Shown here piece after piece: positions 35,638-36,732 of a DNA stretch of 52,451 bases. The notes beneath the pieces are model-generated. The model was not told the origin of the DNA and did not search any database. It worked only from the letters and a program-made list of their open reading frames with translations. The stretch's first letter is position 1. Every line of letters begins with the position of its first letter. The position numbers and the translations under genes were made by a program. Source of the DNA: Bacteroidales bacterium (GTDB lineage: Bacteria; Bacteroidota; Bacteroidia; Bacteroidales; UBA932); the NCBI GenBank assembly GCA_017544265.1, contig JAFYEM010000037.1:1-52451 (forward strand). The letters run 5' to 3'.

Positions 35638-36732
35638 TTAGGGCAGGCTGGCGAGGGCTATTGCAGTCATGGCCTCGACTATTACCGGAGTGCGAAGGGC
35701 AAAACAGCAGTCGTGGCGCCCGGGAATGCCGGCCTTGGCAATGCTGGAAGTGGGTTTGAAAGCTACGCGGAACACCAGGGGATTGCCGTTGGTAATGCCT
35801 CCGTTGACTCCTCCCGCATGGTTTGTAAGCGGAATCAGAGGTTTGCGGTGACGCCCGCAGCATCCTCCCTCATGATGGCCCTCGCCTCCGTGGCAGCACT
35901 CGTGGCCGTCCTCATGTCCTCCGTGGCAGCATTCATGCTCTCCTTCTTCTTCGTGATGGCAGCACTCGTGGCCTTCTTCGTGTTCGCCGTGGCAGCACTT
36001 GTGCTCCCCCTCTTCCGGATAGGGATCGTTGTGCTCGGAACCTTTCATTGCAGCAGCTGCGAAACCATCCCCGAACTCTATTCCCCGGACTCCCGGAATG
36101 GAGAAAACAGCATGCGATACCGTGGATTCCACGCTGTTCCAGAAAGGCTCGCCGAGACCTATCGGAAGGCCCTCGGTGACACAGGTTACTATTCCCCCGA
36201 GAGAATCGCCCTCTTCCATCGCCTTGCCAAGGACCTCGCTCCATTTGGAACTGTCCTTTTCTCCGCCGATTTCGGTAAGTGTGGCGCGGATGCTGGCGAA
36301 ATAGAGCATTTTCTTGGCCACTACCCCGGCAGCCACTATCGGAAGCGTCATCCGTCCTGAAAAATGGCCTCCTCCACGCGGGTCGTTGAAACCGCCGGAT
36401 TTGATTTTTGCAGTGTAATCCGCATGCCCCGGACGGGGATTCTCCGCGAAGGAGGCATACTCCCCCGAACGGGTGTTCTCGTTTTGAAAGAGGATGGTCA
36501 GCGGCGCGCCCGTGGTGAATCCGTTATAGACCCCGCTGACAATCGACGCTTTGTCCGTCTCCTGCCTCGGCGTGGTGCCTTTCGCGCCCGGGCGGCGGCG
36601 CATCAAATCCTCGGAGAAATCTTCTTCCGAGAGAGGAATTCCGGGGAAAACCCCGTCCAGAGTCACTCCTATGAGGCTTCCGTGCGACTCGCCGAAAATC
36701 TCGACCTTGAAATTATTGCCGAATACGTTCAT
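35638..36732 (-). CDS. aroC: Chorismate synthase with a Cys/His-rich repeat insertion
   Basis: 364 residues. All core motifs: FGESHG (13-18), RRRPG...TTPRQETDK, SGVYNGFTTGAPL, DPRGGGHFSGR (117-127), GIEFGDGF, GSEHNDP (231-237), NHAGGVNGGITNGNPL (304-319). It uses reduced FMN to turn EPSP into chorismate, the last shikimate step. Between GSEHNDP and NHAGG lies an insert (about 239-298) with 14 His and 10 Cys in residues 244-295, and CCH cores at 246, 257, 268, 279 plus CC at 291. It is in frame and the C-terminus is intact, so the protein looks functional. Bound metal, heme or redox role is unknown. Promoter at 36785-36792; the gene converges on dacB with a 24-bp gap. Confidence 0.95.
   Translation of the reverse strand: MNVFGNNFKVEIFGESHGSLIGVTLDGVFPGIPLSEEDFSEDLMRRRPGAKGTTPRQETDKASIVSGVYNGFTTGAPLTILFQNENTRSGEYASFAENPRPGHADYTAKIKSGGFNDPRGGGHFSGRMTLPIVAAGVVAKKMLYFASIRATLTEIGGEKDSSKWSEVLGKAMEEGDSLGGIVTCVTEGLPIGLGEPFWNSVESTVSHAVFSIPGVRGIEFGDGFAAAAMKGSEHNDPYPEEGEHKCCHGEHEEGHECCHHEEEGEHECCHGGHEDGHECCHGGEGHHEGGCCGRHRKPLIPLTNHAGGVNGGITNGNPLVFRVAFKPTSSIAKAGIPGRHDCCFALRTPVIVEAMTAIALASLP
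35853..36009 (-). repeat. 33-bp tandem repeat inside aroC coding the 11-residue CCH units
   Basis: The sequence TGGCAGCA recurs at 35891, 35924, 35957 and 35990, exactly 33 bp apart, with a diverged fifth copy 36 bp further on near 35855. On the coding strand each copy encodes Cys-Cys-His plus an acidic/His linker. The period is a multiple of three, so expansion or contraction by slippage keeps the frame. Confidence 0.85.

What the first reader, a model, noticed from the sequence alone, without database searches (positions are those of the whole stretch)
35839..36018. Chorismate synthase carrying an 11-residue Cys-Cys-His repeat insertion
All catalytic motifs of AroC are intact, yet between GSEHNDP and NHAGG an in-frame block of about 60 residues holds 14 His and 10 Cys (residues 244-295), with CCH cores exactly 11 residues apart (246, 257, 268, 279). 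The DNA shows 33-bp tandem repeats, so the array can vary in copy number without breaking the frame. The insertion falls in a loop of the active-site half. Such a composition is typical of metal storage or metal-sensing tails, but in a shikimate enzyme it is unexpected; it could link aromatic synthesis to metal or redox state. Metal binding is inference.
Basis: partly seen in the sequence, partly recalled or inferred. Interest (0 to 1): 0.85.

Follow-up and report, generated by a model that had tools for sequence, protein, structure and literature searches.

The report
Histidine-cysteine insert in chorismate synthase
A housekeeping enzyme that makes aromatic amino-acid precursors carries a conserved, disordered histidine-and-cysteine block like the metal-binding tail of the nickel chaperone SlyD, and among the genomes read it was seen only where SlyD was not detected, so the metal-holding tail may have moved to a new host protein.

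Summary
In detail: the window's chorismate synthase (AroC, 35638-36732, minus strand) has an extra loop with 14 His and 10 Cys in 52 residues, CCH at residues 246/257/268/279 and a 33-bp period. It is not an artefact: 53 of 400 same-genus genomes (window included) show it; 51 inserts were read in full (19-93 aa). The loop is predicted disordered. In 74 close pairs its pN/pS is 0.17, near the core's 0.13, so its protein sequence is under selection. The best clue lies outside the gene. SlyD, the nickel metallochaperone, has the same kind of tail in this genus. None of the 53 insert genomes has a detectable SlyD, and none of 77 SlyD-positive genomes whose loop was read has the insert. In SlyD-negative genomes without a seen insert, similar tails sit on a PatB lyase (2 genomes) and a ketosynthase-cluster protein (1). 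HypB is present in 29 of 34 insert genomes tested. I read it as a portable SlyD-like metal reservoir. Metal binding is untested, and the correlation rests on only 2-3 independent gains.

The parts
35638..36732 (-). aroC, chorismate synthase, 364 aa, only copy found in this genome
35824..36024 (-). extra loop, residues 237-303, between GSEHND and NHAGG; insert-less relatives mostly have 6-24 residues here
35848..36003 (-). His/Cys-rich block, residues 244-295 (14 His, 10 Cys); residues 253-256 and 258-295 predicted disordered
35885..36015 (-). 33-bp (66-bp) tandem repeat encoding the 11-residue CCH units
   Evidence: lag-33 identity
35722..35739 (-). second loop (KPTSSI-AKAGIP-GRHD), 6 residues where most relatives have 20; shortened in the main insert clade, in G208/G245 and in some insert-less SlyD-negative relatives

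Best explanation
The insert is a disordered, multi-site metal-binding reservoir of the SlyD-tail kind, carried by AroC in lineages without detectable SlyD. Shown: the insert is present in 53 of 400 same-genus genomes, is under purifying selection, and was found only where SlyD is not detected; tails of the same kind occur on SlyD in SlyD-positive relatives and on PatB and a ketosynthase-cluster protein in three SlyD-negative genomes. Inferred: it binds Ni(II), or Zn(II)/Cu(I), through CC-H clusters, buffers metal in the cytosol and can hand nickel to HypB/HypA, while AroC goes on making chorismate. Copy number drifts by slippage of the 33-bp units. The loop is a permissive site, also hit by dispersed DNA repeats, one of which reads CHSERSEES and so supplies Cys and His.
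For: Selection: insert pN/pS 0.174 against core 0.130 in 74 close, not independent pairs; in 10 gap-free pairs of the L004 group insert pS is 0.22-0.46 and pN 0-0.024. Distribution: 0 of 53 insert genomes have SlyD, against 284 of the other 347; 0 of 77 SlyD+ genomes with the loop read have the insert, against 51 of 75 SlyD- genomes; in genomes at least 90% complete and at most 5% contaminated, 0 of 17 against 114 of 133 (the 17 counted by me from the rounded values). Second contrast: the L004 group (6 genomes, insert+, SlyD-) beside seven insert- genomes, 6 of which are SlyD+. Same-kind tails on SlyD, PatB in G081 and G276 and the G211 protein. HypB over cut-off in 29 of 34 insert genomes, 6 of 6 other SlyD- and 14 of 40 SlyD+; HypB and HypA reading frames lie on one contig of the window's genome (HypA named by eye). 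Disorder fits E. coli SlyD, whose unstructured tail binds up to 7 Ni and is called essential for hydrogenase maturation (passages of PMC7055735).
Against: No metal binding or transfer was measured. On the AroC tree the insert arose only 2-3 times and the phylogeny-aware pair test has 2-3 pairs (median p 0.5), so shared ancestry could explain the link with SlyD absence. Of 63 SlyD-negative genomes without a seen insert (some incomplete or without AroC), I found a tail on another protein in 3, so a replacement is not obligatory, though my tail searches missed about half of the known positives. One of the three, G211, is only 76% complete and its AroC loop was not read. Insert and SlyD tails differ in composition (H .24 C .14 G .15 against H .14 C .19 G .27, K .09) and show no clear DNA kinship beyond their peptides, so descent from the SlyD tail is not shown. 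No nickel enzyme was searched for. HypB is missing in 5 of 34 insert genomes.
Confidence: 0.6

Rival explanations
1. Metal storage or detoxification in general (zinc or copper), with the absence of SlyD only a clade coincidence.
For: His/Cys tails bind several metals (PMC7055735 passages: H. pylori SlyD binds Ni or Zn). Only 2-3 independent gains. SlyD absence extends beyond the insert.
Against: Zero overlap in 53 genomes and again in the separate L004 group. Similar tails on two other proteins were seen in SlyD-negative genomes and not in the SlyD-positive ones searched (9, 5, 17), but those searches were insensitive. HypB frequent in insert genomes.
Confidence: 0.2
2. The insert senses metal or redox state and regulates chorismate synthase activity.
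For: It lies in the enzyme itself, beside the conserved GSEHND and NHAGG stretches; a second loop is shortened in the main clade, perhaps a structural adjustment.
Against: Copy number and sequence vary widely (19-93 aa); the loop is predicted disordered; the same kind of tail occurs on unrelated proteins; the L004 group keeps the second loop at 20 residues.
Confidence: 0.1
3. A tolerated repeat insertion without function: the loop is a landing site for dispersed repeats, as palindromic elements insert in frame in Rickettsia proteins.
For: 10 of 51 inserts contain the peptide of a dispersed repeat that also lies outside AroC; another insert sits in the same loop of SlyD-positive relatives, as a clean 126-bp insertion against an insert-less neighbour. 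In-frame RPE in Rickettsia: passage of PMC3733652.
Against: Purifying selection on the insert nearly as strong as on the core; His/Cys kept while copy number changes; the other inserts, with at most two His/Cys in four read ones, show the loop need not be metal-rich.
Confidence: 0.08

Closest known systems
C-terminal metal-binding tail of SlyD (FKBP-type PPIase, nickel metallochaperone)
   Same: Disordered, rich in His, Cys, Glu and Asp, variable in length, CC-H clusters; SlyD tails read in this genus look much like the insert.
   Different: Here inside a loop of an enzyme, not at the C-terminus; no FKBP domain; more His and less Gly/Lys; seen only where SlyD is not detected.
HspA, the GroES of Helicobacter pylori with a His/Cys-rich C-terminal extension
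   Same: A housekeeping protein with an added His/Cys extension that sequesters nickel and serves hydrogenase maturation (passages of PMC4671568).
   Different: Different host, terminal rather than internal; shown by experiment there, only inferred here. No sequence comparison was made.
Rickettsia palindromic elements in protein-coding genes
   Same: Small dispersed DNA repeats inserted in frame into proteins (passage of PMC3733652); 10 of 51 AroC inserts contain the peptide of a dispersed repeat.
   Different: Most of the insert is a tandem array under protein-level selection; relation of the repeat families not tested.
Ordinary chorismate synthase (Bacteroidota)
   Same: Complete PF01264 core, one copy found.
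   Different: Long His/Cys loop and, in the main clade, a second loop of 6 instead of 20 residues.

Membership tests
Chorismate synthase (PF01264 / TIGR00033) | Profile match over the whole core and over the curated cut-off | tested here: met
   PF01264 320 bits against 27, residues 8-362; TIGR00033 284 against 212; the sister model NF003793 falls short, 305 against 321
Chorismate synthase (PF01264 / TIGR00033) | Catalytic activity with reduced FMN | not testable with these tools
   Only sequence conservation seen
SlyD | FKBP/SlyD PPIase core | tested here: not met
   AroC matches only PF01264 in Pfam; no SlyD found in the window's genome; that genome has four FKBP_C matches, none hit by the SlyD search, and the C-terminal ends printed show no His/Cys tail (for L150 the frames shown may not be the FKBP)
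SlyD-tail-like metal reservoir (works like) | Disordered stretch rich in His and Cys with several CC-H clusters | tested here: met
SlyD-tail-like metal reservoir (works like) | Binds several Ni(II) or Zn(II) ions and supports nickel enzymes | not testable with these tools
   HypB presence is only circumstantial
SlyD-tail-like metal reservoir (works like) | Common descent with the SlyD tail at DNA level | tested here: inconclusive
   6 inserts against 16 tails (SlyD, PatB, G211): best codon match reached by 4, 2, 30, 2, 12 and 19 of 30 synonymous recodings
In-frame dispersed repeat (RPE-like) | Same DNA repeat elsewhere in the genomes | tested here: inconclusive
   Repeat peptide in 10 of 51 inserts, its DNA also outside AroC; not in the window, 0 copies

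The most novel reading that the evidence does not exclude
A metal-storage tail is a portable module that changes host proteins when its usual carrier SlyD is lost: a loop of chorismate synthase (2-3 times), the C-terminus of a PatB C-S lyase, the C-terminus of a protein of a ketosynthase cluster. In these gut bacteria the nickel donor to HypB/HypA is a shikimate-pathway enzyme.
Probability: 0.33. Interest if true: 0.9.

Novelty: new variant of a known kind. Interest (0 to 1): 0.76.

Why it matters
If right, a metallochaperone function can be uncoupled from its protein and carried by unrelated enzymes. That would mean metal-handling capacity cannot be read from the presence of SlyD alone, and that a disordered repeat, which can be gained by slippage or repeat insertion, is the transferable unit. 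It also gives a direct test: insert and insert-less AroC from close relatives form a natural pair.

Tried and rejected
Assembly artefact: rejected, because inserts of different sequence occur in 53 of 400 genomes. Named records show them too, but at least some are the same genomes as the unnamed ones (equal contig lengths for G115, G393 and G406), so they are not independent proof. Chance composition: rejected. Descent of the insert from the SlyD tail by DNA: no clear support. A census of tails on other proteins failed as a negative test. The insert alone as protein query found 2 of 76 genomes and missed insert genomes G061 and G088 and the SlyD tails. A composite tail query gave matches at E up to 10 in 17 of 31 genomes, most of them weak, and hit the known tail in 5 of 10 genomes known to have one (missed G061, G081, G088, G208, G036). 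The G211 tail as query found only itself clearly in 80 genomes and missed the PatB tails of G081 and G276. The pattern GARTGYTGYCAYGGN hit 23 of 76 genomes, most of them chance; it found the tails of 4 of 9 SlyD+ controls and 3 of 4 insert controls (four listed places had no locus of their own). DNA search in plasmids: no match. Origin from the CHSERSEES repeat: the peptides look alike (CHGEH-EEGHE and CHSERSEESHE), but the window's insert has no copy of the repeat; left as an idea. Comparing the model with solved folds was not possible. No report of such an insert was found in the paper library: searches (chorismate synthase + histidine-rich, 3 papers; 7; 4; 5; 0), of which I saw the listings only; PMC7055735, PMC4671568 and PMC3733652 were seen as passages.

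Full report
The observation. The AroC gene lies at 35638-36732 on the minus strand and encodes 364 residues, a chorismate synthase by Pfam PF01264 (E 1.6e-95). Residues 244-295 hold 14 His and 10 Cys; CCH starts at 246, 257, 268 and 279. The DNA has a 33-bp period (lag-33 identity 0.52). The density is far above chance: 24 H+C in 52 residues, against at most 15 in 2000 shuffles of the same protein and at most 14 in any other six-frame reading frame of 60 or more codons in the window. AroC gave one match in this genome, which is 90.5% complete.

Relatives. In 400 same-genus genomes, the window's own included, 374 have an AroC match, and 53 carry the His/Cys insert at the same place by alignment and inspection. 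Fifty-one inserts could be read in full; of the other two, one (G203) has a TAG inside and one (G406) a run of N. Lengths are 19-93 aa, median 60, median 23 H+C. I read the loop directly in 152 genomes of the genus (77 SlyD+, 75 SlyD-), so for the other AroC-positive genomes the absence of an insert rests on the alignments alone, whose list of matches was cut. Named records show the same inserts in uncultured Bacteroidales/Bacteroidia genomes, several labelled RUG and one sheep reticulum; at least some of them are the same genomes as the unnamed ones. The genus is not named by the tools; Candidatus Cryptobacteroides is my guess. No insert of this kind was seen outside the genus among the loops read there (seven and some).

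Tree. A tree of the AroC core with both loops removed (126 rows, quick method) needs 3 changes for the insert, at least 2 forced by starred branches: the L004 group (G003, G382, G172, G088, G418, G389), the main clade of 42 with the window (support 93, not starred), and the pair G208/G245. The main clade lies in a group of 60 rows (support 90) that is SlyD-negative except G377. The pair G081/G276, next to the main clade (support 83), has lost the loop altogether. Left out of the tree: G203, G406, G345 (insert+) and G262, and G164 and G342, whose AroC my script did not parse.

Selection. In 74 close pairs (inserts with at least 8 H+C, core identity at least 0.88; not independent) the insert shows pS 0.533 and pN 0.093 (ratio 0.174), the preceding core 0.384 and 0.050 (0.130). 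Protein-guided alignment of inserts of unequal length could lower pN. In ten pairs of the L004 group with no length difference, insert pS is 0.22-0.46 and pN 0-0.024. The insert is therefore maintained as protein.

Structure. AlphaFold2 (35 sequences) gives mean pLDDT 80 and pTM 0.81; residues 253-256 and 258-295 fall under 50 without secondary structure, and so do 118-124 in the core. The insert is predicted to be a floppy loop. I did not measure its distance to the active site.

The link with SlyD. A weak hit of the first search (G008) was a SlyD-type FKBP with a tail of the same kind. It matches E. coli SlyD 2kfw at E 8.5e-25 but falls short of the curated cut-off of NCBI's model NF008008. 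A search with the SlyD core finds it in 284 of 400 genus genomes and in none of the 53 insert genomes (Fisher 8e-34, not corrected for ancestry). In genomes at least 90% complete and at most 5% contaminated the counts are 0 of 17 and 114 of 133 (the 17 from rounded values). Of genomes with the loop read, the insert occurs in 0 of 77 SlyD+ and 51 of 75 SlyD-. In the L004 group SlyD was not found in any of the six insert genomes (G382 is only 56% complete), and of the seven insert-less neighbours six have it; the seventh, G330, is 73% complete. The phylogeny-aware pair test has only 2-3 pairs and cannot be significant.

Other hosts. Among SlyD-negative genomes without the insert, G081 (94% complete) and G276 (97%) carry a long His/Cys tail on a PatB-family C-S lyase (G081: TIGR04350 E 4.4e-121; G276 94% identical; tails). 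Of the 30 lyase loci fetched, my motif printed 16, and only these two have such a tail. G211 (76% complete, AroC loop not read) carries one on a protein of unknown family lying between ketosynthase-like genes, named by eye. In the other SlyD-negative genomes searched no tail was found, with searches that missed about half of the known positives.

Nickel. HypB exceeds its cut-off in 29 of 34 insert genomes, 6 of 6 other SlyD-negative genomes and 14 of 40 SlyD+ genomes; all 80 were chosen by me, the SlyD+ ones mostly for completeness (Fisher 1.5e-5 for 29/34 against 14/40, not corrected for ancestry). In the window's genome HypB lies at G000:C42 with a 941-residue oxidoreductase-like protein and HypA, the last two named by eye. 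In E. coli and H. pylori HypB forms a complex with SlyD; the E. coli tail is reported to bind up to 7 Ni(II) and to be essential for hydrogenase maturation (PMC7055735 passages). H. pylori GroES is a precedent for a housekeeping protein with such a tail (PMC4671568 passages).

Origin. The loop is permissive. In SlyD+ relatives G017, G096, G212 and G073 it holds other long inserts with at most two His/Cys. G212 against its near neighbour G066 (95.6% identical elsewhere) shows a clean 126-bp insertion. Ten of 51 His/Cys inserts contain the peptide of a dispersed repeat (CHSERSEES and near forms); copies of that DNA lie outside AroC, once as 33-bp tandems in G113. The window's insert does not contain it. 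No clear DNA kinship with SlyD tails is seen.

Conclusion. The likeliest reading is a SlyD-like metal reservoir that has moved onto AroC in SlyD-less lineages. What is shown is conservation, selection and distribution; metal binding, nickel transfer and causation are inferred.

Noticed in passing
L329 (G000:C42:1-4590): HypB, a 941-residue FAD/Fe-S oxidoreductase-like protein and HypA lie in a row; the nickel enzyme they would serve was not seen on this 4.6-kb contig.
   Followed up: partly
L088 (G212), L104 (G066), L005 (G017), L083 (G096), L253 (G073): A different insert, poor in His/Cys, in the same AroC loop of SlyD-positive relatives, with a clean 126-bp insertion in G212 against G066.
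   Followed up: partly
L300 (G113), L271, L328, L039, L332, L362: Dispersed repeat TGTCATTCTGAGCGCAGCGAAGAATCT (or one base different) outside AroC, in L300 as 33-bp tandem copies; in one frame it reads CHSERSEES. L039 and L332 are probably the same genome.
   Followed up: partly
L227 (G081), L235 (G276): AroC loop deleted altogether (GSENTHKGG) in the two genomes whose PatB has the His/Cys tail.
   Followed up: partly
window 35722-35739: Second AroC loop of 6 instead of 20 residues in the main insert clade and some insert-less SlyD-negative relatives.
   Followed up: partly
L036 (G203): In-frame TAG inside the AroC insert of one genome: sequencing error or broken gene.
   Followed up: no
G001, G004, G008, G011, G015, G023, G027: A second group of AroC, only about 48% identical, within the same genus.
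   Followed up: no
G045:C159, G046:C248: slyD lies next to aroC in two other families of the order.
   Followed up: no
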